In this document: positions 8,674-63,620 of the stretch, piece after piece
How the letters are laid out: each line of letters starts with the position of its first letter
Numbering within the stretch: the stretch's first letter is position 1
Source: Loxodes magnus
Taxonomy: Eukaryota > Ciliophora > Karyorelictea > Loxodida > Loxodidae
Direction: 5' to 3'
DNA length: 64,000 nucleotides
Assembly (NCBI GenBank): GCA_946699065.1
Contig: CAMPDV010000240.1
Span: 310,001-374,000, forward strand
Translations under genes and position numbers: made by a program
Notes under the pieces: model-generated
Database searches by the model: none
The model's input: the letters and a program-made list of their open reading frames with translations, nothing else
Told to the model about the DNA's origin: nothing

Positions 8674-9390
8674 ATGGAAATAGAAAAAATCTGAAATAAA
8701 ATGAAAAAATAACAAACTTGAAATAATTTATAAGCAATCTCAATGGAAATTGAAGTGGTATAAACGGGAGCAGGGATTTAAAAGAAGTAATGCTGCACTT
8801 GTAGTAGCACATGACATCTCAGAAGAAGCTGCAAGTAAAATAATATGATTAGAAAGAAGATTTGAAAAAATTTTACTGCCTTTTACCTAACAAAGGATGG
8901 AAGACTATGGAAAAAGAAGCTGTATCAATAAACGTAGTATGAATCTAGAATTGAGCTGGTTTTAAGCTAGAGAATCCGGGGACTTGATCGCTACCCTAGG
9001 AGAAAATAATTTTTTAAAGGGACAATTTCTTTTTTTATAAAACCTTTTAATTTGATCTGATTTAAGCTATTAATTTATTGAAAATCATAACAAATATTGC
9101 ACGTAATTATCGTTAAACTCAGTTATTATTAAAATAATATTTTAATAGGAAGGAGTAATCCTCCAACTGAGAATAACTTAACTCAAGTACCAGGAAGTAC
9201 TTTAGGAGCAACAAATGAAGCAAGAATCTTGGCAGGAACCAAGCAGGAAAAAACTTGAGGCATTGAGTAAAGATTGTTGAAAGACACCAAACGATTAGGT
9301 TTCTTGGGGCATCATTCTGACCTTGTCCTATTAGAAGACAGAGTTTCCAAAGGAGTGAAGTACTGGAGGAAACTTCAGAGGAAAAATTTT
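8674..9390 (+). CDS. CCHC zinc-knuckle (Gag-like) ORF A, in-frame TGA codons
   Basis: With TAA/TAG read as Gln and TGA as Trp this is one open frame of 239 codons; both ends are uncertain. At 8791-8832 it encodes a CX2CX4HX4C knuckle (CCTCSST-x-HLRRSC, x = TGA at 8812-8814). A MEIE motif lies just before it (ATG at 8743), as in ORFs B and D. The region after the knuckle is basic, ending near KGVKYWRKLQRK. CCHC knuckles bind single-stranded nucleic acid and are typical of retroelement Gag proteins and some RNA-binding proteins. TGA occurs seven times and TGG twice. It faces ORF B tail to tail. A decayed element is the main alternative; a short intron near 9101-9147 (GT...AG) is possible but unproven. 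Confidence 0.42.
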
Positions 9391-10370
9391 ATTAAATTTA
9401 AATCATTAAATCTGTAAAATAAATGTTCGCCTTCCGGCTTAATTGAAATTTTAAATGTATATTATCTCCTTTCCTGCATGTTCGTTCCTTGCATTGTTCC
9501 TTTTCCTTGATTTCTCTCTTTTGAATAATCGGAGTTGAGAATTTTTTTTTCTCCAGATTTTCCCATTTCCCGATGGGAAGAATTCCATCGCTCGCTACTT
9601 CAGTTGCTATTAGTTAATATTTCTCCAAATATTCATTCTATCTTTTTCTATTGGGGACATTTCCTCTATAAATGTCAAGTACTGCTGCAAATATAGCATC
9701 TTTTTCTTGCTCCCGGAAATGTCTTTTCTTGTTTCTCTATTTCCATTGGAGTTCCTTATGAAGGCTTCTACAGGTTTTCTTCTATTAATTTGAGTCTAGA
9801 ATTTAATTTTACTCAGTTTTTCTCGTCTTGCTCTTACATTACTCAGATATCATTCTCTAAACTTGTCATTTACTCATAAACTCCGGCTTTATCTCTTCGG
9901 TCTACCATATGGGCTTCATCATCATCTTCATGACTTATTAAATCTTGACATAATACAAATATCTCTTCCTTTTGGGAGTTTAATTCCTCTTCAAGTTTTT
10001 TTATGTTTCTAATAAGTTGATGAATCAGCTGTTTCATCTACTCAGAGTCCATTTGTTCTATTTCGGTATTGCTTAAATCAAAGGTAATAGGATCTATATT
10101 GAACTATCGTACTTTACCTTCTTCGTTTATTTTTTGTTTTTTCGTTATTATTTTTATCGATTCAGTTGAATGGTCTCTTTTTTCAGTTTTCAATGGAAGT
10201 GTTAAGAGTTGTGTTAATTTTTCTGTTCTGAATTTTTATCTCAGTTCTTATTTGTCTTTTGATGGAAGGGATTCACTTTATTTTAATTTGTAGGAGTTAG
10301 TATTTTTTATAAGTTCTTCTAATCTATTAGATAGTTCCGGTTATTTTTATTAAGAAGAGCGTTAAGTTGA
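9375..10370 (-). CDS. CCHC zinc-knuckle (Gag-like) ORF B with coiled coil
   Basis: A single minus-strand frame runs from about 10370 to a TGA at 9375-9377. The first in-frame ATG I see is at 10052, so the true start is unresolved. The N-terminal half is hydrophilic, then a coiled-coil-like stretch (QMKQLIHQLIRNIKKLEEEL), an acidic run, a PMEIEKQ motif and a knuckle at 9657-9698 (CYICSST-x-HLQRKC, CX2CX4HX4C, x = TGA at 9675-9677). Five in-frame TGAs and one TGG occur with no frameshift. The order coiled coil, MEIE, knuckle, basic tail matches ORFs A and D, so they are one family, plausibly Gag-derived. A second frame downstream of about 9790 also looks protein-like, so a short intron is an alternative reading. 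Confidence 0.5.
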
Positions 10371-10392
10371 AGAAGACGTGGTGAGAGTATGT

Positions 10393-10861
10393 GCTTTCTG
10401 GCTTTCTCTCCTGTTCTGAGGAGGTGGTAAAAAAATCCTTCTTGAAGCCAGCCATTTATATATATTTTTATTTTTAAATTTAAATAAAATTAATTTAAAG
10501 AACTGTGCATCATCAAGAGTGCCACACACTCTATGATCTAGTTTATTTATTTAATACACAACAGATTTTATTTCTTTTAAAGTCATATTTAAGTGAACTG
10601 TTCAAAAAAAATTATTACTTAATCCTTTCTTTTAGGCTCTTTATTCTTAATAAAGCACGAGTCAATCCAATATTTTATATCATTGATTTTTTAAATTATA
10701 AAGTTACATGCTATTACTTCTCATAATAGTATCATATGCTAACATTCCAATCAACCTACTATAAATAATAACTTATTCATAGTATATAAAATTAATATAA
10801 TCTCAGCTTATCAGATGCTAATTCACGGTTATATGGTATATTTGAACCTATTGCAACTTCA
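10393..10861. other. Spacer between ORF B and the two-copy family
   Basis: A mixed AT-rich stretch. The plus strand has a short hydrophobic ORF with no recognisable motif, and the minus strand is the likely 5' side of ORF B. No RNA gene or repeat was recognised. Confidence 0.4.
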
Positions 10862-11311
10862 TTTTTGAAGTTTATATTTATAAGTCCTAAAATATGTTAA
10901 TATTAAATATGTAAATATGATTATAGAGCGAGTAGCACCTTGTTGACATGCATCTCTTTCAATATTAATATTTATATTAAAAAAAATGTTGTTATACTTC
11001 TATTGCCTTTCAATTCGTCCAATGAGTCACTTTATTTTCTCCAAATGGTGAATCTAATTATTAAAAATTATTCTTAAATCTTGAATCAAATGATCTAGTT
11101 TTCTTGAATAAGATCCAAATAAGAATTAAGTCATCAGTAGACCCGTCAGTCAAACTTTCATACTGCTAGGGATAACCCTTGGGTAAGTTAGACTGTCTCT
11201 TCCAGCTTATTCACCCTACTCTATGGGGGCATCTAATGCGAAATTACTCGCAATACAGTATACACTACGCCAGATTACTTACTAATTCTCCTGATCGCAG
11301 CCGGCATTCAT
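10862..11311 (-). CDS. Small protein of unknown function, copy 1 of a two-copy family
   Basis: Starting at the ATG at 11311 (MNAGCDQENQQVIW...) one frame of 150 codons runs to a TGA at 10862. An in-frame TGA sits at codon 54 (11150-11152), in SSMKV-x-LTGLLMTQFLF. Against the copy at 18270-18657, codons around that TGA differ mostly silently (Leu CTA/TTA, CTG/TTG, TTA/CTA; Gly GGT/GGC; Thr ACG/ACA). That is the mark of a translated frame running through the TGA. Upstream, codon 14 is TGG here and TGA in copy 2. The predicted protein is mixed alpha-helical with a hydrophobic centre and a charged coiled-coil-like tail (RRIIF-type residues, then LEKIKWLIGRI). I do not recognise the family. The local GC is higher than the surroundings. 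Confidence 0.55.
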
Positions 11312-12504
11312 ATTTTATCATATTTAATAATGGAGCTATTTCAATGTGATGTAATAATATTGATAAAACAACTAATCTTAGTTAGTCTATTTTTCTTCTT
11401 ATAATAGTTACTTGCTAGTTAGAAAATTATATTAATTTAGATGCTCAAATCTTTATGAAAATTTGCTATACCTACTAAGAACTAGACTTGTCCTAGTGAT
11501 TTAATAAAATGATATATTGAAATTCCTAGATTAAAGACATACTTAAAGTGAATTTAAGGTTATATTTGTATATTAATCTATAAAAGGTTCATACTATTCA
11601 TACATAGTATCGTTCTGCAAGTTTAATTTAAACAAACGTGTATATACTAGTAGCTATAAAGCTAATTAGTTAGGTTCAAACTCAGAATTTTTAAAATGAT
11701 AATTTTAGATTTAGTTTATCAAGCTTTTGAAATGCTTCATATATGGTTTCTGAGTAATATGCTCTTATCCCATTTTAATAGTTAAAAATAAAGACTAAGT
11801 ACTAGTATAAAGATTACTCTTCTTTAGCAATATAGATAGCAAATATCAATGTAGTTATTACTTTAACTCTCTCTTTTTCATTCTTTACATTCCAAAGTAT
11901 TTACATTGATACAATCCAATTTAATAGATTTTAAAAATTCTATCTTTTTTATTGAGTATCAGGTAAATTAAAATTGTTCGTAATACAAAGTAAGAAAAGT
12001 TATCCTTATGATCTTAAAACGGATAGGTGACTTTAAAGCAAAGTAATAAACCTGTATACCATAATAATAAAAATGTAGAGACTTAGTTCTAACTAGTTTT
12101 CGTAATAGCAAGGCAGTTCTTCACCTACTATAAAAGAGCTAGAAGTAAAAAAGAAATAGAAAGGCTATATAACTCATATAAATACACTACCTTCTTATAT
12201 CCTAGAACTTATCTTTTCTTACTTTAGTCTTAAAGAAATTTCTCTGTGTGAGTTAGTACAGAAAAAATGATTAACCGTCAAAGTAGAAATTTTTAAAATT
12301 GATAGCTAATGGCTTTAGTATTTTAAATACACAGATTAAAATAGTACCTTAGAGAGTGAAGGATAACAAAGTATGTAGGTAATTTAACTTGCAAAATTGA
12401 ACTTTAATAAGATATGAAAACATAAACCTGCTACGCTGGTTTTCGACTTTTGAGACGTATTGCAAAATGTGAACAATAAATAGTAACTAAGATTCACTAC
12501 TTAG
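11312..12504. other. Intergenic, no supported gene
   Basis: An AT-rich stretch of about 1.2 kb between two divergently transcribed genes. Scattered A/G-rich segments occur, but no frame carries a motif I can defend and no repeat or RNA gene was recognised. It must hold the promoters of both flanking genes. Confidence 0.4.
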
Positions 12505-13791: not shown

Positions 13792-13959
13792 ATAAATTAT
13801 CTACAGTCTCTCTGGAATAAAAGAACAGATATTAGTTAAGAGTTATACTTCTTTTATGTTTAATCGTCTATATTTTTATTCTACTATATCTTCACTTTTC
13901 TCTCTGTAATGCAGTTAGTTTTTCTACATACGTTAATACTTTTTGCTCTATGATACTAA

Positions 13960-14490
13960 CTTGTAAATGGGTGATAAATAGAAGTTAAAGATAGTGGATC
14001 AGTGGATCTTTTAGAAGATAGATATGTTGTTCATCAACTCTCTAAAAGGGTTAAAAAGCCTCAGAAAAATAAGGAAGGGATTAAACGAATTTCTATGGAA
14101 TGAAAAAATGAATATTAAAGAACCGTTTAATAGCATTCAATTAATTAACGTTCTATGCTTTTAATACCATCTTAACTAGCAATCGTATATCAAATTATTT
14201 TCATTATCACTCTGATTATGTGGCGAATATCTAGAGTTGAGATAAAGTAAATTGAGAGAGAGATTGATAAATGAGATTAGATACTAAAAAGGTAGTATTA
14301 TAATAAGTAGGCTCTCATAGATCGGGGGTAATCTGGGAAATGTATTCTCTGTATTTTTAAGTTTAAATAAGCTGCTACAAAATAAAGCCTGCTTATAATA
14401 CCTATTACTATGTGTTTTTAAGCTTCATATAAAGGTTGAAAAGGAATGTAAAGTATATAGTGTTTTCATTGAGAGCTAAGCAAGGTAAAT
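13960..14490 (+). CDS. Possible short CDS containing the 253-bp repeat
   Basis: With TGA as Trp, one frame reads VKDSGSVDLLEDRYVVHQLS and continues into the repeat as MWRISRVEIKQIEREIDKW, then CILCIFKFKQAATK. The part before the repeat is unique to this locus. There is no recognised domain. The three differences between the two repeat copies all change amino acids in this frame, so there is no sign of protein-level constraint. The call is weak and the repeat may be non-coding. Confidence 0.25.
14216..14468 (+). repeat. 253-bp direct repeat, copy 1
   Basis: Starts TTATGTGGCGAATATC and ends AGTATATAGTGTTTTCA. It matches 17860-18112 over exactly 253 bp with three substitutions and no indel. The similarity begins and ends abruptly. 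I see no terminal inverted repeat and no target-site duplication, so a classic MITE is not supported. Confidence 0.9.
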
Positions 14491-14580
14491 ATTCTTTAAT
14501 CTAGCTTTAAGGGGGATTAATTAGTAGACTAAATAAGAACTTACAGAATAGCATATACCAGGAATACCTACATCAGAAGA

Positions 14581-15243: not shown

Positions 15244-15570
15244 ACAGGAAGAAGCAAGAACTGCTATCCTTCAAATAGGATTGAGATTTTCTACCAAAAA
15301 ACTTTTGCAAGTTAATAAGTAAATATAGAACAAAATATAACAAGTATACATTAAAGGATTAAATTTAAGAGTATGCATTAAATATAAAAGCTAAATACTT
15401 ATTCAAGATTAAATTATAATATTAAAGATAAAATATACCCCAAAGTATAATATAATAAGGGTGCTTAAAAAATATAATTAATTAATTTTAACTATAAGGG
15501 TTAGGGTCATCTTTAATTAGAGAAAATGTTTCCTCAAATTAAAGACAATAAAAGTTTTTATATTCAATAC

Positions 15571-16422
15571 TCAACTGTACATGTCTTCATCTGAATCAAT
15601 TTCAAACTGAGATAATTCTTCTTTCTCTTCAATAAGCTCATAGAATTGTTCTTCCATCTTCTTGTAATTTTTCTCCAGGTTCTCTAAACAAATTCTAAGG
15701 TTATTGTTGTTCTTTTAAAGCTATTTATTCTGTTATTATTAATTACCAAGATCCTGTTTGATTAATATCACACTTGAATCATCTAATATCAGCTTCTTTC
15801 TGTAAATACCTCCAAAGTAATTACAATATAGCCTCCTCGATATTCCAAGTTATTTACGGTGCTGCTCAAGTACTCTTCTTCACTTCGGACATTACTTCCA
15901 AAAATGCCCAGCCTTTTGACAACAATAGCAACGTTTTATTAAGGATTTTAATTAAAATTTTTATTCTGTTTACATTTTTTCAATTTCCATCTTTTCTGAT
16001 TGAAGTTAGTTTTTTTTGATTGGTAATCGAATTTCTTCTTTAATTTTCTATTGATTTGCTTCTAGGTTTTTTTCTAATAGTTCAAATTAGGAAGTTAAGG
16101 CTTCAATTTAAAACTAATCTTTACTTACCAAGTCTTGATCTTCCTTTTTACTATCTTAAAAAAGAAGCCGAAGATTCAAGTTTTCCGCCTTCAGGATCTA
16201 TATTTCGGTATTCATTTTCTCAATTAATGAATAAAGTTAAATAACGTCTAGCTCGTGGGTTTTCTCAAGCTTTTTCAGTTTGCTAGGAAACTCCGTATTT
16301 CCCAATCCTTAACAGGAGTAGATTTATCTTTTTTGAATTCTTGGTTCTCGTTAGTCAACTGAGACTTAAGATTGATCTTTAAGATTAGAATTCAAGGTTT
16401 ATATTCCCGGGTTTTTTTCCAT
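15571..16422 (-). CDS. CCHC zinc-knuckle protein (Gag-like) ORF D
   Basis: The best member of the knuckle family: 283 residues from the ATG at 16422 to a TGA at 15571-15573, after an acidic tail (SQFEIDSDEDMYS). Order: hydrophilic N-terminus; coiled coil (about residues 50-140; IEKMNTEIQILKAENLNLR); MEIEKMQTEQ; knuckle CYCCQKAGHFWKQC at 15889-15930 (perfect CX2CX4HX4C with the usual Gly before His); then a second coiled coil (ICLENLEKNYKKMEEQFYEL). One in-frame TGA follows the knuckle (codon 181, 15880-15882, CPK-TGA-RRV). As W it gives a full-length protein; as a stop it leaves a coiled coil plus knuckle of about 180 residues, as in Gag with readthrough. Likely a single-stranded nucleic-acid binder. 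Confidence 0.7.
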
Positions 16423-16609
16423 TTTTAATTACTTAAAAGATATAAAAAGCACTACATTCATTTATTATAATTATTAAATGGTAGACAAGAAGTAATATTT
16501 TACTAAATGTCTGTATATTCGTAAAATTCTAAGACGAAGAGAAAATTCCTTGGTAAGTAAAATTCCTCTCCTACTTTTCAAGTACGAAATTTTGCCGAAT
16601 TTATGTTAT

Positions 16610-17398
16610 ATGGAGTTGAAAAGATTCATCGTAAATAAATCGGCAAACAGTGAATGATTGGTTTATGAAACTGAAGAAAACTAAATTGAATCGCATGAGA
16701 TGTAAGATGAATAATGAAGTGACATGAGCTACTTTATATTTCAACTGACTGATAAAAAATTTGTTCTTTCTAAAGATTCACTTTATTTTTTTTCCGAATA
16801 CTAACTTAAAAACTAATATAAGCTAGTAAATAACTATGAAGAAAGAAACAAATTAACTTTAGATAGAAAGAGAAAAAAGCTTTATGTTATAAGCGCTTGA
16901 AGTAGTATTTAGCCCAAGCCAGGATTTTTCGAAGTCTTTGATATGAACCTAAATAAGTCTTAATATCTTTCAAAATGTCCTTAAGAATCAGCAGGTAGCG
17001 GATTTACATATGCAAAAGACAATGTATATAGTATTGGAGGATATACTGGATTAATGAGCTCAGATATATTTTAGTATGAATGTACAAGAAATGAATGGCT
17101 TAAAATAGAGAATATTCTTAAGTCAGAGTCCCATATAATTCAAAGTTTATTCATTTAAAAGCACGAATCTATTTTACTTTTTGATGAATACTAATATTTT
17201 GATGGAACAGCTTTATTCGATTTTAAACAAATAGTAAGACATGGACCAAATTTTCCATAAATAACAGGAGCTTATCCTAACTTCTAGCCTTTATAATCTA
17301 ATAATATAATTTATAGTTACTCAATATTCCGTAATGTCTACAAACTTTGTGCTTACGATTTGAAAGGAAGATTGTGGAATACTTTGTTTACTCTTTGA
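16610..17398 (+). CDS. Kelch-repeat protein 2
   Basis: Frame from the ATG at 16610 to a TGA at 17396-17398 (262 residues). Kelch blades are visible: KKLYVISAWSS...GFFEVFDMN, AKDNVYSIGGYTG...SDIFQYECTRNEWLKI (double Gly followed by the Y...W pair), and a last strand ending LCAYDLKGRLWNTLFTL. Kelch repeats form a beta-propeller for protein binding. TGA occurs in frame three times (after NSE, after DEQ and after ISA) and TGG twice, including one kelch Trp. The N-terminus is uncertain: an ATG at 16506 opens another frame with a GTAAGT donor at about 16554, so one or two tiny introns may join it. It is shorter than most kelch proteins, so possibly partial. Confidence 0.65.
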
Positions 17399-17859: not shown

Positions 17860-18112
17860 TTATGTGGCGAATATCTAGAGTTAAGATAAAGTAAATTGAG
17901 AGAGAGATTGATAAATGAGATTAGATACTAAAAAGGTAGTATTATAATAAGTAGGCTCTCATAGATCGGGGGTAATCTGGGAAATGTATTCTCTGTATTT
18001 TTAAGTTTAAATAAGCTGCTAAAAAATAAAGCCTGCTTATAATACCTATTACTATGTGTTTTTAAGCTTCATATAAAGGTTGAAAAGGAACGTAAAGTAT
18101 ATAGTGTTTTCA
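17860..18112 (+). repeat. 253-bp direct repeat, copy 2
   Basis: Same orientation as 14216-14468 and 98.8 percent identical (three substitutions, no indel). Its flanks are unrelated to those of copy 1. It lies about 160 bp from the degenerate second copy of the unknown small gene. Confidence 0.9.
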
Positions 18113-18269
18113 ACTGAATTTTCTTAAATGCTAAGATAATTCAAAATTTATGGTGGACTTATTATGTCTAAATAGTATAATAAAAATTACATATTTGAAG
18201 CAAACCTTCTAGTAAATTAAGCATATGATAATATATGATTTTCTTAGTAAATAAATAAAGATAATTTTA

Positions 18270-18657
18270 GAGCGTAACAACTTCGTTGGCACACAGCTCT
18301 TTCAATATTAATATTTAGTATTAATAAAAAGTGTTCTCATGCTTCTTGCTAAAATTCTAGCATTGCAATAAGTTACGTTAGCTTCTCCAAATGGGAATCT
18401 ACTTCTTAAAGATTACTCTCGAATTTTGAATCAAATGCTCCAGTCTTCTTGTATAGGATTAAAATAGGAATTAAGTCATCAATAAGCCTGTCAGTCAAAC
18501 TTTCATACTGCTAGCGAGAACTCTCGGAAAAGTTAGATTTTTCTCTTACAGCTTGTTCACTCTTCCCGGTGATGGCATCTACTCTGAGATTACTCGCAAT
18601 GCAGTATTCAATGCATCAGATTACCTTCTAGTTCTCCTAACCGCAGCCAACATTCCT
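18270..18657 (-). pseudogene. Copy 2 of the small unknown gene, frameshifted
   Basis: Homologous along its length to 10926-11311. The start codon is lost (AGG for ATG at 18657). One base more than copy 1 lies just before the SSMKV segment and one base fewer near the PIW/HHLE segment, so no single frame covers the protein. Codon 14 is TGA at 18616-18618 where copy 1 has TGG. The TGA after SSMKV is retained at 18495-18497 and the codons after it differ mainly silently from copy 1. It is a diverged pseudogene or a relative whose indels are sequencing errors. Confidence 0.58.
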
Positions 18658-18743
18658 TTTATATATTTATTAATAATAAACTATCTTGTCTTGTGTTGGG
18701 TATATTCTAGGATAAAATTTTAAATACTTACAAGGGAGGAGTA

Positions 18744-20570: not shown

Positions 20571-21539
20571 ATGTCTAAAAAATAGGAGAATAATGCTATA
20601 AAAATATTGTACTTGAGGAAGCTACTTAAGAAGGAAAATAAGATGTAGTTTGGAATAGGAATAATACGCTATGATATATTCCCTAACTTCTAGTGTTATG
20701 ATCTACGTCTAAGGAAGCATAACTCGCAAGGGGTTTTATTATAATACCGAATAATAGAATTCTGGAGTAACATTCTATTGTCGTTTGATCTAGAAAATTA
20801 TTAAAAAACCAAGCAGAATTTAGAAACGCTAGAGCCTGTCTATTAAAATACTACTTTCTCGTTATAAGCCAGTAATAATCTAAGTATTCTGGCAGGAGGT
20901 TATGATAGTCATGACTTTAAAAGTCATAAAGAGAATATCATTGTAATAGGAGAGGCAGAAATAGAAATTCATAGATTAAGAAATCCAAGAGAGTCAACTA
21001 GATTAGAGTATGATAACAAGAAACAAGTTTTCATCATTGCTGGTCGAGATCCTTCGATAGATGAATACACAAATACATGTGAAGTTTTTAATTTGGATAC
21101 CAAAAAGTCAAAATTAATATCAGAGCATCCTTTTTTAATGAAAAAGAATGGAGTAAGTTATGCATATGAAATGATATTTACATTTGGAGGTTGTAGTAAT
21201 TAAGGTTATCTAGATAATATTTGCTGCTTTGATGTGATCAAGTAGAAGTGACTATAGTTTTAAAAGGTCTTACCTGAAAAGCCAGGGGCAGTCTCAGCAA
21301 TATTTGCGAAAGATTAAGAGTAGTTCCTATTATTTGACAGTGACGAAGTTTTTAAAAAGACATATAGTTATGACTGGAAAAGTATCGACGAGCATGGAAA
21401 AGAGTTTCCTTATGTAGATACGAATCCTTGGTTCAATGCAATATATTAGGGAAGGAAGATATACATGTATGATGGAGCACATACAGAAATAGTTTATTAG
21501 TATGATACAGCAAATGGAAGATAGTGGGTTGAAGTTTGA
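20571..21539 (+). CDS. Kelch-repeat protein 1 with TGA at a canonical Trp
   Basis: 322 residues from the ATG at 20571 to a TGA at 21537-21539. Blades are clear: ILAGGYDSHDFKSHKENIIV; STRLEYDNKKQVFIIAGRDP...EYTNTCEVFNLDTKKSKLI; EMIFTFGGCSNQGYLDNICC-FDVIKQK-x-LQFQKVLP; and a last blade with RKIYMYDGAHTEIVYQYD...RQWVEV. The x is the only in-frame TGA (codon 227, 21249-21251) and sits where kelch blades carry their conserved Trp. Three or more other Trp codons are TGG. The protein probably forms a partial beta-propeller for protein-protein contacts. The alternative is a pseudogene with one TGG-to-TGA change, but the rest of the frame is intact. An upstream in-frame stop does not help fix the start, so the first Met is a guess. 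Confidence 0.75.
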
Positions 21540-32009: not shown

Positions 32010-33614
32010 ATGGCAAGTAATACTTAAGTTCTAAAGCTTTTCATTGGCGATATGATTATTCGTGTGAAGGAGAACCCGTCCACCTTCATATAGCTACAAA
32101 ACGTTATAAGGAATGCGATTGGGGATTAAGAAAGCTAGAGATATTCAGTTTCATACCAGGATGAGGAAAATGATACTATTTAGATATTGAGTGACAGCGG
32201 ACTTCAGGAGGCTCTATAAAACTGCTAGACCAATATTTTGAAACTAAAGGTGGAGAAACTACCAAACTAGTCTGATTGCGTTTCAGCGAAATATGAACCT
32301 ATTTAGACTCAACCTTTACCTAGCTTCCTAGGAAGTAACTTCAATTCGAGCTAATCAAGTTTTTAATTCTCGAAACTTGGAGATGAAACTTAATGCTTAG
32401 AGAAGAACTCAAAGACGTGTAAAAAAGAGGAAAAACCAAAAGAGGATAAAAAGGAAGATTAAATATCTAAGAATAAAGCTAAAAAGCTGTAAAAATATGC
32501 ATAGAAGTAAGCATAGAAAAAAACAAAGATACAGGAGAGGTTGTAAAAGCAGCAGGAATAATAGCAAAGAACCTAGTTCTAGAATGAGGAATTTAGCAAT
32601 AATGATCAATGGGTTTAAGAAAGCATCCGAAATGAAGTATCAAGTTTAGCAACTTCTTTCCTTCAAAATCTAAAGGATTCTGAGTTGAATCTAAACTACT
32701 AAGGAAGTGATTAACTCGTCATTCATCATAATGTAGAATGTGATAACTGTGGAATTCACCCTCTGGTAGGAATAAGGTACAAATGCACAGTTTGTGATAA
32801 CTATGATTTTTGCTAGAAATGCGAAGTTGAAGTACAGCATAGTCATCCTTTCCTCAAAATAAGACGTCCAGAATAAGCCTTAAAATACATTCAGGTTTAA
32901 TATGGTAATGAAAGCAATGAAGGAAAATGTGAGCATCAAATATAAAAGGAAGAAAGCAAGTAACTTAGCTCGTAAAATGAAGAGGAAGATTAGTTTAAGC
33001 TTCTAGACTTTGAAAATAAGGAATCTTTGACCTAGTAGAACACGCAAGATTCGTTCTCGTAAGATTCCACTTAATCACAATAACAACCATAATCAAAGCT
33101 CAAAAGCATATGGAATAACGTAACCAGCATCTTTAGTAGTGGCCTATACAGCTATGATGCTACCTTTTTACTACCTCAGGATTATACATTCGAAACTGTT
33201 CTTTAGCCTAAAATAAATGTTACCCAAATGTACAAAGTATAGAATACAGGGAATTAGCCATGGAATGAGACAATTACTTTATAATAGATTCAAGGAGATT
33301 TCAAAGCAGAGCCAATTAACCTACCTACACTACAACCTGGTTAGACAGGAGATATTGCTATTAAAATCGAAGTACCAGAAAAAGAAGGAAAATATCGTGG
33401 AACACTACGCTTCTTTGATACTGACCAAGTCGCATTTGGTTCTAAATTAGTGATAAGCTTCAAGGTCCAAAAGAGTTAGTACGAAAATGAAATTTATTAG
33501 ATAATGTGTTTAGGATTTGACAATAAGCAGAAAATAGAGAGGTTATTAATGGAAAATGATGGAAATATGGAAATTGTTGCGGACATTTTAATGAATCAAG
33601 CATCAAATAGCTGA
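32010..33614 (+). CDS. NBR1: NBR1-type selective autophagy receptor (PB1-ZZ-FW-UBA)
   Basis: 534 residues from the ATG at 32010 to a TGA at 33612-33614, with TAA/TAG as Gln and no internal TGA; its three Trp codons are TGG. Domain order is that of animal NBR1 and plant Joka2: PB1 at 7-75 ([14 protein letters not shown]...[22 protein letters not shown], the acidic OPCA motif); a Gln/Lys-rich linker; ZZ zinc finger at about 243-290 ([17 protein letters not shown]...CDNYDFCQKCE); Ser/Gln-rich linker; FW (NBR1 central, Ig-like) domain at about 390-495 ([13 protein letters not shown]...[10 protein letters not shown]); UBA at about 498-531 ([19 protein letters not shown]). NBR1 bridges ubiquitinated cargo to Atg8 on the autophagosome. 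A canonical Atg8-interacting motif was not pinned down. Choosing the earlier ATG keeps PB1 complete. No intron is needed. Confidence 0.93.
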
Positions 33615-37405: not shown

Positions 37406-38593
37406 ATGAAATACGACAAAGCAATTGGAAACGGCTAAAGTGAGTAAAGTAGCGAAAGATAAAGCAATGTTATTTCAGTAAAGCAGTTGCCTTGGACTGA
37501 AGAAGAAGATAATCTTATCTATCAATTCTATGAAGATTTGCCTCAAAGTTAGAAGTAAAGAATACCTTGGCTTTAGGTAGCGGAACTTATCAACTAAACG
37601 GTTTATAATGGTAAAGCTATAAGGAACAACCATAATGTCAGAGAACGTTGGGCTAACTATCTTAATCCTTAGTTAAAAAAAGCTACTTGGACTTTCGAAG
37701 AAGATTGCCTTATTGTTGAGAATAGAGTGAAGAATGGAAAGAACTGGAGACTAAGCTCTTAGATAATGAAAGAGAGAAACAGTCACTAGATAAAGAACAG
37801 GTTTTATTAAATCTTTTCAAGCAGTTTAAAGAAACAAGAAGAAAGCTTAAGTGTCTTTAAACAGGTACTTAACATTTAGAACCTCAAAGAGTTTATTGAG
37901 TATTTCAAAACTAGTAAAGACAAAAAGGTTCTAAAGTAGATAAAGCAAATCTAGGATAAAAAGCTTAAAGCTCAAGAACTAAAAAAGCATTTAATCCAAG
38001 AAGGATAAAAGCAATAAAAATAGTCTTCAGAGTAAAAGGAAGTTAAAAGTTAACCAAACAGTTAGATAAATCAACCAAGTTAATAGCCAAAAGATTTGAT
38101 ATAAAAGGATTAAAAACAAGAAAATGAAACTGAATAAAATCATTCTACACCAAACTAGGACTTCACGTATATTAGTTTCCCACAACCGTATTATAAGTAG
38201 CAACCATTGAGTTTTACAACTCAGTAAAGTACTTAAATGAATAATCCAAATGAAATGGGATTATTGTAGTAAAATAGTTTATAAAATAGTTATCTAAACT
38301 AGTTTAATAATTAGTATTATAATTGCCAATCTATTGGCAACGTATATTAATACCCATGGACGTAAACTAACTAAATATTCTAAAATACATATTTTATTCA
38401 ATATCCATAAAATTAATTTTAGGAATTTAAGCAGCCCCAAGATCAAATGTATACGTCCAGCATGTCAAGTCCGTTAGAAGCCTCCAAGAGTTCGCAGAAT
38501 ATGTAGTTTAGTAGTTAGAAGTATAATTGTAACTCAACTAATGCAGGAAATGATTAAAGTAGAGGAAAGTAAATTAACTCTATTATTTATTGA
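37406..38593 (+). CDS. Two-repeat Myb-like DNA-binding protein, copy 1
   Basis: 395 residues from the ATG at 37406 to a TGA at 38591-38593, with many TAA/TAG Gln codons and no internal TGA; all six Trp are TGG. Two Myb/SANT repeats: first at about 29-88 (LPWTEEEDNLIYQFYEDLP...IPWLQVAELINQ...IRNNHNVRERWANYLNP), second at about 92-140 (KKATWTFEEDCLIVENRVKN...NWRLSSQIMKERNSHQIKNRFYQIF). The spaced Trp residues and the RERWANYL/KNRFYQIF recognition helices mark an R2R3-type DNA binder. Residues 140-215 are a Lys-rich coiled-coil-like region; the rest is Gln/Asn/Ser-rich low complexity, as in activation domains. Probably a nuclear transcription factor. Copies 2 and 4 encode the same protein; copy 3 is broken. 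Confidence 0.9.
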
Positions 38594-48768: not shown

Positions 48769-49953
48769 TTAATAAAATTAGAGTTAATTTACTTTCCTCT
48801 ACTCTAATACACTTCCTGCATTAGTAAACTTACAACTGTACTTCTAACTACTAAATTACATATTCTGCGAACTCTAGGAGTCTTCTGAAGAGCTAGACCT
48901 GCTGGACGTATACATTTGATCTTGAGGCTGCTTAAATACCTAAAATTAATTTTATGGATATTGATTAAAATATGTATTTTAGAATATTTAGTTAGTTTAC
49001 GTCCATGGGTATTAATATACGTTGCCAATAGATTGGCAATTATTATACTAATTATACTAATTTATATAAGTGTTTTATAAACTATTATACTATAATAATC
49101 CCATTTCACTGGGATAATTTATTTAAGTACTTTACTGAGTTGTAAAACTCAATGGTTGCTACTTATAATACGGTTGTGGGAAACTAATATAACTGTAATC
49201 CTCGTTTGGTGTAGAAGGATCTTAGTCACTTTCATTTTCTTGTTTTTAATCCTTTTTTATTAAAACTTCTGGCTATTAACTTGGTTGATTTATCTAACTA
49301 CTTGGTTAGCTTTCAATTTCCTTTTACTCTGAAGACTACTATTATTGAGCTTAGTCTTCTTGGATCAATCGCATTTTTAGTTCTTGAGCTTTAAGCTTTT
49401 TATCCTAGATTTGCTTTATCTACTTAAGAACCTTTTTGTCTTTACTAGTTTTGAAATACTCAATAAACTCTTCGAGGTTCTAGATATTAAGCACCTGCTT
49501 AAAGACACTTAAGCTTCTTTCTTGTTTCTTCAAGCTATTTGCAAAGATTTAATAAAACCTGTTCTTTATCTAGTGGCTATTTCTCTCTTTCATTATCTAA
49601 GAGCTTAATCTCCAGTTTTTTCCATTCTTCACTCTATTCTCAACAATAAGGCAATCTTCTTCGAAAGTCCAAGTAGCTTTTTTTAACTAAGGATTAAGAT
49701 AGTTATTCCAACGTTCTCTGATATTATGGTTGCTTCTTATAATTTTACCATTATATACCGTTTAATTAATTAGTTATGTTACCTAAAGCCAAGGTATTCT
49801 TTACTTCTAGTTTGGAGACAAATCTTCGTAGAATTGATAGATAAGATTATCTTCTTCTTCAGTCCAAGGCAACTGCTTTACTGAAACAGCATTTTTTTAT
49901 CCCTCGCTATTATTCTCCATTTAGCCGTTTTCAATTGCATTGACTTATTTCAT
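48769..49953 (-). CDS. Two-repeat Myb-like DNA-binding protein, copy 2
   Basis: The ATG at 49953 opens a frame parallel to copy 1 through both Myb repeats (SVKQLPWTEEEDNLIYQFYE; IRERWNNYLNP; ATWTFEEDCLIVE), the Lys-rich region and the Gln/Asn-rich tail. All six Trp are TGG and there is no internal TGA. Near the C-terminus a one-base insertion and a one-base deletion relative to copy 4 cancel, bringing a TAA (48769-48771) exactly where copy 1 has its TGA; ending there gives 394 residues against 395. If TAA is read as Gln the frame runs on to a TGA at 48472 and overlaps the start of the 671-aa gene, which looks wrong. A TATA-like element lies at 49983-49990. Probably a transcription factor like copy 1. 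Confidence 0.87.
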
Positions 49954-49982
49954 TTTTATTATATTTTAAACACTCACCTGCC

Positions 49983-53302: not shown

Positions 53303-54235
53303 ATGCTGTTTGATGAGTAAGATGCTAACATTGAAATGGGAGTTGTAGTGATGGATTAAGCAGAATCGTTTCAGTTAAGTAGTTATCTTGGGCGGAAGAA
53401 GAAGATAATCTTATCTATCAATTCTATAAAGATTTGACTTAGGTTTAGTAATAAAGAATTAATGGGTTTAAGTCGTAAAGTTGATAAACCAATCTGTTTA
53501 CAAAGGTAAATATGTAAGAAGCAACCATAATATCAGAGAACGTTGGAATAACTATCTTAATACTTAGTTAAAAAAAGCTACTTGGACTTTCGAAGAAGAT
53601 TGCCTTATTGTTGAGAATAGAGTGAAGAATGGAAAAAACTGGAGATTAAGCTCTTAGATAATGAAAGAGAGAAACAGCCACTAGATAAAGAACAGGTTTT
53701 ATTAAATCTTTGCAAATAGCTTGAAGAAACAAGAAAGAAGCTTAAGTGTCTTTAAGCAGGTGCTTAATATCTAGAACCTCGAAGAGTTTATTGAGTATTT
53801 CAAAACTAGCAAAGACATTAAGATTCAAAAATAGATAACGCGTTTTATATGTAAAAAGTTAAAAGTGTAACTACTTAAAAAGTCTATAAATCAATAAGAA
53901 AAAGTTACTATAACATAGTATTCTGAGAAGTAAGATGTACATATATTACAAAATAACTAAATTTTGCTTCAGAAAATAAAGTACCATAAAGGCTTAGAAT
54001 AATACCCTCTTCACTGAACATTGAAAGTAAGTAAATTATTTCCCCACAGCTTTAGTATAAGAAATAACTATTAAGTTAATCAACTCAGTTAAGTACTTAA
54101 GTAAATAACTAAGTTCCTGGGATTGTAGTAAATAAATAAGTTATACTAAAACTATTGCAACTAGTATAATAATTGCCAATAAACTAGCAGCGTATATTAA
54201 TATCCATAAGCGGAAATTTATTAAAATATGTCTTT
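53303..54235 (+). pseudogene. Broken Myb-like gene, copy 3
   Basis: From the ATG at 53303 the frame shifts before the first Myb repeat (SVKQLSWAEEEDNLIYQFYK lies in another frame). The first repeat is cut short by a small deletion and a TGA near 53485. 53530-53810 is nearly identical to copy 2, including the second Myb repeat and the start of the Lys-rich region. After about 53820 the sequence decays, keeping only fragments of the Gln/Asn tail (ATAATTGCCAAT near 54170). The relation to copy 2 is much closer in the middle than at the ends, as expected of a dead copy or one patched by gene conversion. Confidence 0.85.
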
Positions 54236-57200: not shown

Positions 57201-59248
57201 AAAATAGTCTATGTTTAAAGGCAAAAAACCTATTATGGGACTAGATAAATAGAGAGTGTAGCTTCTGATAGTAATTTCGAATTAGATAATTGAATAAAAA
57301 AGAAAATAAAGAGTTCGAAATAAAAACTCTAATCTTTTAAAAGCAACAAATAGAAACTTGAAACAAGACCGTCTTCATTTTGAGAATTAGGCTTTTTATC
57401 TTCAAGAAAACTAAACTTAAAATATTAATTGACGTCTTTAAGTACCCGAACTGCTTCTTTTAATTAAAGACATTTTATTGCCTTTAGAATAAAATCATCA
57501 TTCTCTCTTCTCCTTTTTGCCGTCTTGTTATTCGCGCTCTTTACAATTTTCTCCAGAATAGATATCTTAGTTCTGAATGAAAGTACCAACAAGTGAAAAA
57601 ACTTTATTTAAGCTTCCAAATATTTAACCTACTTTCTAGAAAGATAGTTAATATATACTTAATCGCAGAGTATCAGTCTCTTTATATCTAGGATTCTAAC
57701 CTTTTACTCAATTCATCCTTAAAGTCACTATAATATATACATTCCACTACGTGATTAAAGTGTCGTTATCTTACATTTACAATGTGGGTAGTCAATTAGA
57801 TACTGACAGTCTTATAACTGAGTTCTAGTTTTTTAAAACTAATCATTTCTTATCTATTTACTTATTGAACTTAGCATATGCTTTTACTGGGAGATACTAT
57901 AGATTTCGAAATTATTAGGTATACATTTAATCAGTAGCCTCCTGCCTAATCTTTCAGTGACAGACTTATATAGTTTATGTTATATCTTTATCTGTCTAAA
58001 AGCAATAAGGCTGTTGCCATTCTCTTTCCTTCTTAAGTCAATATCATAATAAGTAGCCATTTTATTAGCATCATTGTAGTATTGATATCCTTCTCTTAAG
58101 TTGTTTGCAAAAGTTCTCCTATTAGTGAATTAGGTTAAAATGCACTTTGTTTGCTTATTTTATAAAAGAATATAAAAAACCTATGTGACATTATTTGCGT
58201 AAAAGGAAGTCAATTCAAGTCTATGCTACATGATTCTATAAATGATGTTCCCACTGTCTAAAGGGGTTTCGCTTAATAAGACTCATATTTGTCTCAGTTT
58301 TATTTAATGTAGAAGTAACTACCAACTAAGTTGCTCTTGGGATTATATCTCCTCCTCCATTTTCTGCTTTGGATAATGCAAAAAGCCTACAAAGGTTTTA
58401 AAGCGTTAAGGTGCTACATTCCAATATCTCGACAGTTAAAAGTCTACTTTTTTCATGTCAGCGAGATATTTAGAACCTACTTCCTTACAATGGTCAAGTA
58501 TTACTGCTACCTTCTATAAAAATAAATGACTAGATAGTAAGCATCACAAGAGAAACCCTATAAATGCACATTTTACCAAGCAAATGAAAGTTGATATATG
58601 ATGAGATTCATTAAGTAAAAGCGTGAAACCTTACTGAATTGTTCTTACTAAGTCAGCTAAATTATGGATATAGTAAAGTCTTCGGAAAGGAAGTGTGGTT
58701 CTTATTAAGGTTGCACTATTTCCAATCAACGTCACATTTAAACTTGTATTTGATGTTATGTTCTTATTGGCATTATACCCTGTCTTTTTATAAGGCTTCA
58801 TGGATATAAAACTCCATTTATTATGGAAAAAAGTTTTCTTTACATCAACTCATTTTATCATATTTCGCAGTCGATTTATATCCTGGAAATTGAAAGGGAG
58901 CAATGAAGCATAATTAATTTTCTTAATTCCATTCTTACTGCAAAAGTTATGAATTCCTACAGAACTTCATCATACCCCTCACTTGTATGATTCTACCAAA
59001 GTAGCAGAAATCGAAAATAAACTATCTTAGGATAAATAATTCTAAAGGATGCAGCTAGATTAATCTCTTCTGCTCCAACTTTCATTCACCTAACTATCTT
59101 TTTCTTATTTACATACTTTAGCTTCAACCTAGTTAAATCAGCCTTATTATTAGTCTATCAGCTAGTAGCTTTACTAAGATTTGATAAGAAGTAAGGAAGA
59201 AAAAAAGGTTAATGAAACAATTATTAAACAAGAGTTAAAAGGTTACGA
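54236..59248. other. Long interval, one weak coding-like zone at 55720-56330 (minus)
   Basis: In the minus strand around 55990-56220 a frame reads TSLDEDSLQIGLKLG-x-INEK (x = TGA) and then SKLEGLIRTRPSKLEEPIER, plausible for a helical protein but without a known domain. 57500-58500 contains short Ser/Phe/Leu-rich readings only. No repeats or RNA genes were recognised. Confidence 0.3.
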
Positions 59249-60430
59249 TTAATAAAAAATAGAGTTAATTTGTTTTCTTCTACTTTATTCATTTCCTGCA
59301 TTAGTAAACTTACAATTATACTTCTAATTACTAAATTACATATTCTAAGGATTCTAAAAGGCTTCTTCAGGATTGAACAAACTGGACGTATATGCTTGAT
59401 CATGTGTCTGCTTAAATACCTAAAATTAATTTTATGGATATTGATTAAAATATGTATTTTATAATATTTAGTTAGTTTACACCAATGGGTATTAATATAC
59501 GTTGCCAATAGATTGGCAATTATTATACTAATTATACTAATTTATATAAGTGCTTTATAAACTATTATACTATAATAATCCCATTTCGCTGGGATTATTT
59601 ATTTAAGTACTTTACTGAGTGTTCAAACTCATTGTCTGTTACTTATAATACGGTTGTGGGAAACTAATATACTTGTAATCTTAGTTTGACTAAGAAAGAT
59701 GCTGTTCTGTTTCATTTTGTCGCTTTAAATCGATAATTATAAAATCTGTTGGCTAATATCTTGGCTGGTCTATCTAACTGCTTGGCTAGCTTTTAACTTC
59801 CTTTTATTCTGAAGACTATTTATATTGGTTTTATCCTTCTTTGATTCGTTTTTTTAGCTCAAGAGCTTTCAGTTTTTTATCCTAGATTTATTTTATCTTT
59901 TTTATTATTGCATTATCTTTGCTGTTTTTGAAATACTCAATAAACTCTTCGAGGTTCTAGATATTAAGCACCTGTTTAAAAACTCTTAGGCTTTCTTCTT
60001 GCTTCTTTAAACTGCTTGAAAAGATTTAATAAAACCTATTCTTTATCTAGTGACTGTTTCTCTCTTTCATTATCTAAGAGCTTAGTCTCCAGTTCTTTCC
60101 ATTCTTTACTCTATTCTCAACAATAAGGCAATCTTCTTCGAAAGTCCAATCAGATTTTTTTAGCTGAGGATTAAGATAGTTAGTCCAACGTTCTCTGATA
60201 TTATGGTTGTTCCTTATAGCTTTACCATTATAAACCGTTTAGTTGATAAGTTCTGCTACCTAAAGCCAAGGTATTCTTTACTTCTAACTTTGAGGCAAAT
60301 CTTCATAGAATTGATAGATAAGATTATCTTCTTCTTCCGTCCAATATAGCTACTTAACTGAAAAATCATTACATTATCCATCACTAAAATTCTCGTTTGA
60401 GCTGCTTTCAATTACATTGACTTGTTTCAT
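59249..60430 (-). CDS. Two-repeat Myb-like DNA-binding protein, copy 4
   Basis: The ATG at 60430 starts a frame matching copies 1 and 2 throughout: first repeat YWTEEEDNLIYQFYEDLP... RNNHNIRERWTNYLNP, second repeat KKSDWTFEEDCLIVENRVKN... KNRFYQIF, Lys-rich region, Gln/Asn-rich tail ending near RRKQINSIFY. All five Trp are TGG, with no internal TGA. At the position of the TGA stop of copy 1 (TAT TGA) this copy has TAT TAA (59249-59251), giving 393 residues. Read through as Gln, the frame continues to a TGA at 59138 and adds 37 unrelated residues. It is more diverged from copies 1 and 2 than they are from each other. Confidence 0.87.
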
Positions 60431-60456
60431 TTTATAAACAAATTATCATTCCCAGC

Positions 60457-60464
60457 TATTTATG
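60457..60464 (-). promoter_or_regulatory. TATA-like element of Myb copy 4
   Basis: CATAAATA on the minus strand, 26 bases before the ATG, in the conserved context AGAGGCATAAATAG. Confidence 0.42.
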
Positions 60465-63285
60465 CCTCTAGTTCCAATATGGTGTAAAAAATGGCTGACT
60501 TATTAAATAGAAGATTTAAAGCTAGCCATTAAATAATAGGGTTAGTATACTTAAAACTAAATAGTAGCAAATATGTAATTAAAGAGATAAGAAGAGCAAA
60601 TTCTTAAAAATAGCTTACTAGTACATCTTTATCTATTTTTTGAATACTAACTAGTTAAAGTACCTTAGTCTCTACTATGCTATGATCAATTCTATTTCTT
60701 CACTCTACTAAGAATTTCAAATGCCATTGTAAAAGGGGACTTTTAAATGCTTCCAGGTATTCTGTACTGTTTATTAAAAGTTCGAACTAATGTAGTTGTA
60801 GGAGTGTGAGAAGCTTGGATTCCTTTTAATGGGATAACTTAGAAAGCTAGACTATCCAGTCTTGAGTAGACCTAGATCTTAAAGGTAGATTATACAGAAC
60901 ATGGTTATTTGATTCTGACTAAAGTAAGAGAAGTATACCTTCATAGAGATCTCGCGAATATCACAAGACGAAGTGCTAAAGATCAATATAAGTAAAGGAC
61001 TTTGATTAGCAAAGTATCTGAAAATATGTTCCTAATAACTGGCAGTATTCTTAAAATACTCCTTAAGATTATTTAACTTTAACCTTTTGTTCTATCGATC
61101 TTAATTAAAACGTCTCACTTCTAATTACTTAGATAATAGAATAAACTTTCATTATTTGAGAGCATATAGAGACTAATGTCAGTATAAAGGAGAACGATTA
61201 GAAGGTTTTTCTGTTTAAGAACTTAGAAATTGATTCTGTAAAAGGCTAAACTATTTGATGCCGTTAGCTTATAGAAGTTTTGAGTAGTAAGAAAAGGGAG
61301 TTAGCAAAGCTTAAGAGATGAAGATGGTAAATGCTTAGGATGGGAAAGAAGATTGATAATTGGATACCTTTGACTAATTAAATACTGAAATAGAGTATTA
61401 TAAGGGTAATGGTACAAAAAGGATAATGAAAGGAAGGTTGATCAGGTTGTTTTTGAGATGTTGGAATGAGAGTGAAGTGTAGCTAGTCTCATGTTTAAAT
61501 TCAGAAATTTGAAAAATAAGTAAAAGAAAAAGAAAAACTCAAGGAAAATAACCAGAGGAAAACTAGGCTTGATAGTACAAACTTAATCTCCCGTTTAAAA
61601 GACAGAATCACTATTTGACATGCACGTTTTGATATATTAAAAATGCTAAATATCTGCAAAGTTATGTTGATTAGGAACCTAAGGAAACTACTTAATTAAA
61701 TAGTCTGACTAATGAGAAAGTTTGGCTGAAGGGTAATTAGCTCTCTAACTATGTTAATTAAGGTTTTTAACTAAACTAGTTAAGAAATGAAAAGGACTTC
61801 TGTTTGGAAAGGCAGAAGAGACGTTCTGTATTGTCATATCTTTTTAAAAAGGTAAACTAATACCAAGACCTAAGCGTTTAGATAGAAATAACGCTATAGA
61901 GAAGAGTTTGAGAATAAAGGGGTTAGGTATAAAGTCAGTTATCCAGTCGTTATGCTTTAACTACTTAATTTCAATTATTACTGGAATAGCACAAGCATAA
62001 GAAAATTGAAGATGATATGATGCGATGGGAATAAAGCATCCTAAACAGAGAATATACTGGGTTCTAAAAGTTGGAAAATTGACTCCATATTCAAGTAACT
62101 AGATACAAAATAAAGCAAGAAAATAACAATTGCATGAAGGAACTAACTAAAGAGAAAGCTTCTTGACCATACCATTATAGAAGAAATGTTGATTGCACAA
62201 ATAGAATTGCAGTATAGGAAGCAAGTTACCATGTTTTACCCAACATAAGGAAAGAAAAATTTGATAGCAGAAAAAAAATTATCCAGTACTAAAATAAATG
62301 GCACTTTATCAGCTAAACGAACAAGAGTTCAAGCGTTTTTATTATGAACCAAGATAATAACAAACAGTTAAATATCTCTTTTCTCCACATATTATTATTT
62401 CTAACTCCCTTCAAAAAAGAAGGCAAAAAGTAATAAATCTAAGCTAGTAAATGTCTTAAAACTATCCTTCATAAAAATTTATAATATTAAGCAATTCTAA
62501 GCAGTACTAAGTTAAATAACTCTATTTCTGGTAAAAGAGCCAAGTGAGAGATTATATAAGAGTAGATAAGTAAAAGGGATTAAATATCAGTATGAAGTAA
62601 GAGATCTTAAAAGATTGATAGCATTTAGCAATACTTAGAGTATAAAGTATCTAGTTTTGATTTATACTTTTAATTGAGCATTTAGTATATAAAGGAGATA
62701 GGAAGATGTAACTAGAAGGTGAAGATATGAATGGTTGGGATTTTGTTAGTTTAGGTTAGATTTAAACTAAATAGTTTAAGAGTGGCAAGGATATTTGAAG
62801 GAAGATCAAAAGCAGATTAGTTGGTATTATAACATAGAACTTAGATAAATCGAATGCTTAGCTTCTTTATATTTAAAGTAAAAACCCAAAATAGGGTTAG
62901 CGTTAAAAGGTGGGGTTTTAATCTCATAACCATGTTTGTTTAGCTTAACTAAAAAAGTAACATCTAGCTTTTCTAAAAGTCCTAAAAGAGCAAGATTAAA
63001 ATACATTTATCTATATACAATGATAATATTGGTAAGGAATAGTTTAAACTGTATATATAAAAAGGCTAAGATTACTATGATTAATGATATTTTAGTAATG
63101 CTTAAGTAGAATAAGGATATTAGAAGTTTAAGGTAAACAATTCAATACTAGAGTGATTGGAGGTACCAAAGAATTCAATTCTTAGTCAATGTTGAATAGT
63201 CAAGCAACATGGATAAAATACAGAAACTAAGCTAGAAAATGTGGTTATAAAAACATTATAGAGTGAAGATTAGATTGAAGCTAAA
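60465..63285. other. Intergenic, no supported gene
   Basis: The upstream flank of Myb copy 4 lacks the long 5' similarity seen between copies 1 and 2. The plus strand is purine-rich between 61100 and 62300, but no frame has a motif. No repeat or RNA gene was recognised. Confidence 0.4.
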
Positions 63286-63620
63286 CAAGCAAAATAAAGA
63301 GGTTACTATACATATGGATGAAGAAGGTTATAATTCAACAAGATGCTTGATTTTTATAAGGAAAGAAGAAATAGACTGGTTTAAGAAGGTGAACATTTAG
63401 GAGATTTCTTAATCTCATAAAAAGCTAAGAATGCATTTTTTCTGACCATTAATGATCCATGAGCAGACTTGAGGGAAAAAGTAAGTATTTCAAGACTTCC
63501 TAACTTTTTTAATATTATCTACCTATTAAAATATCATCTTAATCCTTATGAAATAACTAAGAAAAAATAGTTTGAATCTATCTCAATAATATTATAATAG
63601 GATAAGATCATACTAAGGGT
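63286..63620 (+). CDS. Possible partial CDS with TGA as Trp
   Basis: One plus frame reads NKMLDFYKERRNRLVQEGEH, then GDFLISQKAKNAFFLTINDP, then x-ADLREK, where x is TGA. The text is strongly protein-like and mixed alpha/beta, but the family is unknown and neither end can be set. 63621-64000 holds nothing recognised. Confidence 0.32.

What the first reader, a model, noticed from the sequence alone, without database searches (positions are those of the whole stretch)
8674..63620. UGA appears to be both tryptophan and stop in a genome where UAA/UAG are glutamine
Seen: TAA and TAG occupy Gln positions in the kinase, NBR1 and Myb genes. In-frame TGA occurs in two kelch genes, the LRR gene, the zinc-knuckle ORFs and the 671-aa gene, while the kinase, NBR1, Myb copy 1 and kelch proteins all end naturally at TGA. 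Known: karyorelict ciliates (NCBI table 27) and Condylostoma (table 28) have such context-dependent codes. Inference: this organism belongs to or converges on that state.
Basis: partly seen in the sequence, partly recalled or inferred. Interest (0 to 1): 0.82.

Follow-up and report, generated by a model that had tools for sequence, protein, structure and literature searches.

The report
UGA read as tryptophan and stop

Summary
The window lies in a 705,730,643-base genome, matching the 706 Mbp Loxodes magnus MAC assembly; that paper states karyorelicts use NCBI table 27, UGA as stop or Trp. In the window the evidence is thin: one TGA (21249, kelch gene 2) aligns with a TGG of its paralogue; the CDPK, NBR1 and both kelch frames end at TGA. 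The other in-frame TGAs I could place do not match Trp; the 671-aa gene and a convincing LRR gene were not found. The whole genome settles it: at the kinase D-x-W-S-L-G motif 28 sites have TGA and 27 TGG (reversed control 1). In 30 of those loci plus the window CDPK, 24 of 35 other TGAs fall in Trp columns holding 1.7% of codons. Machinery fits: tRNA-Trp(CCA) arrays with a 4-bp anticodon stem (reported for Loxodes), no nuclear tRNA-Trp(UCA) found, eRF1 changed at its stop-reading motifs with a TAA-coded GGQ glutamine, and tRNA-Sec(UCA), suggesting a third UGA meaning. Not seen in what I could read: a lone 5-bp tRNA-Trp gene and two array types.

The parts
20730..21539 (+). kelch gene 2 (start uncertain): in-frame TGA at 21249-21251 read as Trp; stop TGA at 21537-21539
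   Evidence: Pfam Kelch_1 E 1.1e-5 (25.3 bits, cut-off 20.1); the KLHDC2/KLHL20 kelch model E 6.1e-8 is below its cut-off; TGA aligned with TGG of kelch 1; coordinates
21249..21251 (+). TGA codon at a kelch Trp column
   Evidence: paralogue codon is TGG (RNEW/KQKX)
16652..17398 (+). kelch gene 1 (5' part uncertain); in-frame TGA at 16898 facing Asp; stop TGA 17396-17398
   Evidence: Kelch_4 E 0.0021, below cut-off; BLASTP to kelch 2 E 7e-17; coordinates
32010..33614 (+). NBR1-like gene (PB1, ZZ, NBR1 Ig-like), 46 UAR codons, frame ends at TGA
   Evidence: Pfam E 6.6e-8, 1.3e-13, 1.6e-15; codons
41834..43240 (-). calcium-dependent protein kinase (kinase + EF hands), 12 UAR codons, no internal TGA, ends at TGA
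   Evidence: Pfam Pkinase E 3e-77; PDB CDPK E 3.2e-105, C-termini coincide
37406..38593 (+). Myb copy 1; TGA end not conserved in the other copies
48850..49953 (-). Myb copy 2 (part counted); 3' end frame differs
   Evidence: Pfam Myb E 3.5e-12
59138..60430 (-). Myb copy 3; frame runs on beyond the copy-1 stop to a TGA at 59138-59140
53334..54225 (+). fourth, degraded Myb copy
9264..10349 (-). zinc-knuckle-like frame with several TGAs, one inside the knuckle at a non-Trp column; probably an element relic (inference)
   Evidence: zf-CCHC E 0.16, below cut-off; translation
15880..16740 (-). zinc-knuckle-like ORF without internal TGA, followed by TGA
   Evidence: translation; no Pfam hit

Best explanation
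The window is nuclear DNA of a karyorelict ciliate, almost certainly Loxodes magnus, using NCBI table 27. UAA and UAG are glutamine. UGA inside a coding sequence is read as tryptophan by an abundant tRNA-Trp(CCA) whose anticodon stem has lost its top base pair (27-43), which lets C34 pair with A. The same UGA terminates translation when it lies at the end of the coding sequence, close to the poly(A) tail, where an eRF1 with a changed stop-recognition surface wins. Shown here: the codon meanings, the tRNA and eRF1 gene sequences, the failure to find a nuclear tRNA-Trp(UCA) of normal shape, and tRNA-Sec genes. Inferred from published work on this and other species: that the 4-bp stem causes UGA reading and that 3'-end proximity decides sense against stop.
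For: Genome size 705,730,643 bases against 706 Mbp published for the L. magnus MAC; that paper states table 27 for Loxodes. Kinase motif pattern: 55 matches against 1 for the reversed control, 28 TGA and 27 TGG. In 30 of those 55 loci plus the window CDPK, motif column excluded, TGA falls in columns that hold at least 3 TGG in 24 of 35 cells (TGG 19 of 27; background 122 of 7008; hypergeometric P 2e-35, treating paralogues as independent; the next codon reaches 1 of 13). eRF1: 8 of 18 aligned TAA/TAG codons face Gln in the best PDB eRF1 chain (CAA/CAG: 2 of 8), and the GGQ Gln is TAA in both copies. Stops: CDPK and both eRF1 genes end at TGA where homologues end; NBR1 and both kelch frames also end at TGA. 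tRNA-Trp(CCA): A27xC43 in the C67 array, U27xC43 in the two C148 copies read; 12 of 12 Lys, Ala and Arg tRNAs in the stretches fetched have 5-bp stems. eRF1 differs from the PDB chain at E55A, F56H, T58R, S60Q and Y125F (human numbering by a shift of 4, recalled).
Against: 11 of 35 kinase TGAs fall outside Trp columns; 2 are in an upstream stretch of L048 that does not look like kinase in that frame, one is at the GTPYW site of STE20-type kinases (recalled), the other 8 are unexplained. In the window only 1 TGA is at a supported Trp column, one faces Asp, and five window genes have 0 TGA against 23 TGG. No transcript, ribosome or mass data were available. The species name rests on the size match plus the code, not on an rRNA comparison. 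Each eRF1 copy has one TAA within 20 codons of its stop, and Myb 1 and Myb 3 have two and four, so the published depletion is not absolute here, or those Myb ends are not true stops.
Confidence: 0.95

Rival explanations
1. Ordinary ciliate code (table 6): UGA is only a stop; in-frame TGAs mark pseudogenes, element relics or short introns.
For: The window TGAs I could place, other than that of kelch 2, are at non-Trp positions or in frames without recognised domains. The genome is rich in retrotransposons (PMC11441545 abstract). Five window genes have 0 TGA against 23 TGG. A 2019 transcriptome paper reported UGA as stop and UAR as Gln in Loxodes, without UGA as Trp in the passages seen (PMC6935857).
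Against: TGA stands at the kinase-motif Trp in 28 of 55 sites, in frames that by eye read as kinases, and 24 of 35 other TGAs are in Trp columns. Pseudogenes would scatter TGA over columns.
Confidence: 0.03
2. Condylostoma-type code (table 28): UAA and UAG also serve as stops near mRNA ends.
For: Same sense meanings and the same 4-bp tRNA-Trp type (PMC13092985 passages).
Against: Three gene ends that homologues let me judge (CDPK, two eRF1 copies) use TGA, none UAA/UAG; a small sample. The published L. magnus work calls UGA the only stop.
Confidence: 0.02
3. UGA is read by a cognate tRNA-Trp(UCA), for example an imported mitochondrial one, rather than by the 4-bp tRNA-Trp(CCA).
For: A mitochondrial tRNA-Trp(UCA) was considered for Condylostoma (PMC4967479 passage). 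My UCA pattern would miss divergent tRNAs, and the mitochondrial genome may be absent from this assembly.
Against: Pattern for a UCA tRNA of normal shape with C32: 1 match against 6 control matches. Three more UCA-type matches with T32 are among the 100 listed. ARAGORN calls no tRNA in the loci that hold these four. Arrays of tRNA-Trp(CCA) with unpaired 27-43 exist.
Confidence: 0.08

Closest known systems
Karyorelict nuclear code, NCBI table 27 (Swart et al. 2016, PMC4967479, passages read; Seah et al. 2022, not held, recalled and seen only as cited; Seah et al. 2024, PMC11441545, outline, passages and section 9 read)
   Same: UAR = Gln, UGA = Trp or stop, TGA at the gene ends examined; assembly size equals the published L. 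magnus MAC
   Different: Nothing tested contradicts it; TGA is at 28 of 55 kinase-motif Trp sites against 0 of 23 Trp codons in five window genes
Condylostoma magnum code, NCBI table 28 (PMC4967479, passages)
   Same: All three stop codons also have sense meanings; 4-bp tRNA-Trp(CCA)
   Different: UAA/UAG stops were not seen in the few gene ends judged here
4-bp anticodon-stem tRNA-Trp(CCA) of Blastocrithidia nonstop, Condylostoma, Blepharisma, Loxodes and Amoebophrya Kv (PMC13092985 and PMC12005148, passages read)
   Same: CCA anticodon, top pair of the anticodon stem unpaired, no nuclear tRNA-Trp(UCA) found; the U-C mismatch of the C148 copies is as given for Amoebophrya, there said to be identical to Condylostoma
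   Different: Here two arrays with different mismatches (A-C and U-C) plus one gene with a full 5-bp stem; whether print describes these for Loxodes is unknown, as the primary report cited by both papers is not held. Amoebophrya also mixes forms (1 of 7 TrpCCA genes is 4-bp)

Membership tests
NCBI table 27 (karyorelict nuclear code) | UAA and UAG encode glutamine | tested here: met
   8 of 18 aligned UAR codons of eRF1 face Gln in the best PDB eRF1 chain, including GGQ
NCBI table 27 (karyorelict nuclear code) | UGA encodes tryptophan inside coding sequences | tested here: met
   24 of 35 kinase TGAs in Trp columns, P 2e-35; 28 TGA and 27 TGG at the kinase motif
NCBI table 27 (karyorelict nuclear code) | UGA also terminates genes | tested here: met
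   CDPK and both eRF1 copies end at TGA where homologues end; NBR1 and both kelch frames end at TGA
NCBI table 27 (karyorelict nuclear code) | UGA and UAA depleted in about 20 codons before the stop (PMC11441545) | tested here: inconclusive
   none in NBR1, CDPK and kelch 2, none seen by eye in kelch 1; one TAA in each eRF1 copy, two in Myb 1, four in Myb 3
NCBI table 27 (karyorelict nuclear code) | Sense or stop decided by distance to the poly(A) tail | not testable with these tools
   no transcript data
Loxodes magnus MAC assembly | 706 Mbp assembly | tested here: met
   705,730,643 bases in 7843 contigs against 706 Mbp
Loxodes magnus MAC assembly | rRNA sequence identity | not tested
   no named rRNA reference was used
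NCBI table 28 (Condylostoma code) | UAA and UAG also serve as stops | tested here: inconclusive
   0 UAR ends among 3 gene ends judged by homologues; too few to exclude rare use
4-bp anticodon-stem tRNA-Trp(CCA) | CCA anticodon with unpaired 27-43 | tested here: met
   A27xC43 on C67, U27xC43 in two C148 copies; matches with C32 and a base other than C at 43: 2, of which one, C110, is a tRNA; with G27 and C43: 0
4-bp anticodon-stem tRNA-Trp(CCA) | raises UGA readthrough | not testable with these tools
   published for other species only

The most novel reading that the evidence does not exclude
Sense against stop at UGA in Loxodes could be set by gene dosage: at least 92 listed copies of 4-bp tRNA-Trp(CCA), of two mismatch types in two arrays, with a single 5-bp tRNA-Trp gene for UGG only, competing with a two-copy eRF1 weakened at E55, T58, S60 and Y125. 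A true tRNA-Sec would give the codon a third meaning, and genes would differ sharply in how much UGA they tolerate.
Probability: 0.25. Interest if true: 0.45.

Novelty: already known. Interest (0 to 1): 0.2.

Why it matters
An ambiguous codon that is sense or stop by context challenges the idea of a strict code and helps explain how codes change. Here the phenomenon is published. The added value is an independent check from raw genome sequence, and parts of the decoding machinery (two 4-bp tRNA-Trp array types, one 5-bp gene, tRNA-Sec, an altered and duplicated eRF1) that make the competition model testable in this species.

Tried and rejected
Pfam on 30 segments and 12 long frames: besides kelch, NBR1, CDPK and Myb, only matches below their cut-offs (TPR, MA3, LRR_12, zf-CCHC and others), not used as Trp evidence. 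ARAGORN and Rfam on the window: no RNA genes. Considered that kinase TGAs lie in introns: rejected for those in Trp columns, because they sit in aligned motifs in frame. PDB search with kelch 2 gave only weak matches, which disagree at the TGA, so the paralogue comparison carries that point. Another window pair (11197-11331 and 18543-18677, 49% alike) shows TGA facing Trp once and Arg once, but its frame is unproven and it was not used. Gln columns in kinases were too few to test UAR well (4 columns; CAA 15 of 85, CAG 3 of 25, TAG 9 of 97, TAA 11 of 183 in them); eRF1 was used instead. I did not search for UAR-reading tRNA-Gln genes. A first alignment with UAR as Gln gave the same picture.
Full report
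What the window is. The window is part of a 705,730,643-base genome in 7,843 contigs. The Loxodes magnus paper (PMC11441545; [quoted passage not shown] I take the source to be L. magnus on that size match plus the code; no rRNA comparison was made. Taxonomy places L. magnus in Karyorelictea.

The window evidence. Clear genes are a CDPK kinase (41834-43240, minus), an NBR1-like gene (32010-33614), and Myb copies at 37406-38593, 48850-49953 (minus) and 59138-60430 (minus), with a degraded fourth copy at about 53.3-54.2 kb. UAA and UAG run through the five counted. The CDPK TGA stop coincides with homologue C-termini. Kelch gene 2 has TGA at 21249 where kelch gene 1 has TGG, within a paralogue alignment of E 7e-17, and both frames end at TGA (17396, 21537). 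Two weak structure alignments disagree on the kelch 2 TGA. The knuckle TGA of the 9-10 kb frame stands where another copy has Gly, by eye. The Myb 1 end is not shared by its sister copies. The 671-aa gene was not found, and only one weak LRR match appeared. Seven window genes contain 29 TGG and one supported TGA-Trp.

The genome test. A DNA pattern for the kinase motif D-[VIM]-W-S-L-G-[VI] with the Trp codon left as TGA or TGG has 55 matches, against 1 for the reversed control; 28 are TGA and 27 TGG. Thirty of the 55 loci were fetched, and by eye nearly all read as kinases around the motif. In an alignment of these 30 and the window CDPK, I left out the motif column, on which the loci were selected, and defined Trp columns only by having at least 3 TGG (4 of 230 columns). 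TGA then falls in such columns in 24 of 35 cells and TGG in 19 of 27, while these columns hold 122 of 7008 cells; the next codon reaches 1 of 13. The P value of 2e-35 treats related genes as independent. The 11 other TGAs come from L045, L048 (2), L054, L056, L057 (2), L061 and L064 (3). Some are probably outside the coding frame, such as L048, or Trp sites of another kinase class (L054, recalled); the rest are unexplained. UGA is therefore tryptophan in this genome, at about half of the Trp sites of this motif.

Glutamine. Two very similar eRF1 genes lie 35 kb apart on contig C196. In copy L075, 8 of 18 aligned UAA/UAG codons face Gln in the best PDB eRF1 chain (2 of its 20 UAR codons were outside the blocks compared; CAA/CAG face Gln in 2 of 8), and the GGQ glutamine is TAA in both copies. 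The third and best-scoring PF03463 match, on C2, looks like Pelota (recalled, not tested).

Decoding machinery. A tRNA-Trp pattern has 137 matches, 100 listed. Forty-eight listed matches are on C67 and 44 on C148, all with the same 30 letters, hence C43. The C67 copies read have A27; the two C148 copies read have U27; in both the anticodon stem is 4 bp. No match in the genome has G27 with C43, so none of these copies can pair 27 with 43. Only 2 matches with C32 have a base other than C at position 43: one on C12 that ARAGORN does not call a tRNA, and a tRNA-Trp on C110 with U27-A43, a full 5-bp stem and one T-stem mismatch. All 12 non-Trp tRNAs in the stretches fetched have 5-bp stems. A tRNA-Trp(UCA) of normal shape was not found (1 match against 6 control matches; three T32 matches; ARAGORN calls none of them), though an imported mitochondrial tRNA is not excluded. 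The 4-bp form in Loxodes is already in print, as cited in PMC13092985 and PMC12005148 (passages). eRF1 keeps NIKS but differs at E55A, F56H, T58R, S60Q and Y125F (numbering recalled). Three tRNA-Sec(UCA) genes score over the Rfam gathering cut-off; the other 49 rows of that search are below it, and the one of them looked at is a tRNA-Ser. A triple meaning of UGA is already described for Parduczia and Condylostoma (PMC4967479 passages). A search for papers holding both Loxodes and selenocysteine returned only one 2015 review, which I did not open.

How it works. The best-supported model is the published one. A near-cognate 4-bp tRNA-Trp reads UGA in the body of the message, UAR is sense throughout, and a modified eRF1 terminates at UGA near the mRNA end. 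Codon meanings and sequences are shown here; the causal steps are inferred from published work.

Verdict. Possibly new are the two mismatch types in separate arrays, the lone 5-bp gene, and the contrast between 0 of 23 UGA in five window genes and about half at the kinase motif. I could not check these against the primary Loxodes tRNA report, which is not held.

Noticed in passing
window 1-8000: GC drops to 15-20% against about 27-33% in the rest of the window; no RNA family there; not searched for domains.
   Followed up: no
window 14216-14468 and 17860-18112: A 253-nt direct repeat, 99% identical, 3.6 kb apart.
   Followed up: no
window 37.2-38.6, 48.7-50.2, 53.3-54.2, 59.2-60.4 kb: Four copies of one Myb gene in both orientations within about 23 kb, one degraded; copies differ in their 3' frame.
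   Followed up: partly
L041:5078-5149 and L041:8893-8965 (contig C110): The single 5-bp tRNA-Trp(CCA) lies about 3.7 kb from a tRNA-Arg(CCT) of similar sequence in several stretches; one may derive from the other.
   Followed up: partly
G000 contigs C78, C103, C158: tRNA matches at regular spacing (about 1753, 527 and 1752 bases) suggest tandem arrays; these arrays were not fetched. The nine other RF00005 places fetched were tRNA-Lys(TTT).
   Followed up: partly
L075:2764-2766 and L076:2764-2766: Both eRF1 copies have a further in-frame TGA 3 codons after the stop, and L075 another at 5, like tandem back-up stops.
   Followed up: no
window about 24.7-25.3 kb, plus strand: TPR-like repeats (NPNYAEAYYNKG) continue in a different frame, suggesting a frameshifted relic or an intron.
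   Followed up: no
window 11050-11331 and 18395-18677, plus strand: A diverged repeat pair alike at protein level (47-49%), with one TGA facing Trp and one facing Arg; no Pfam domain known.
   Followed up: no
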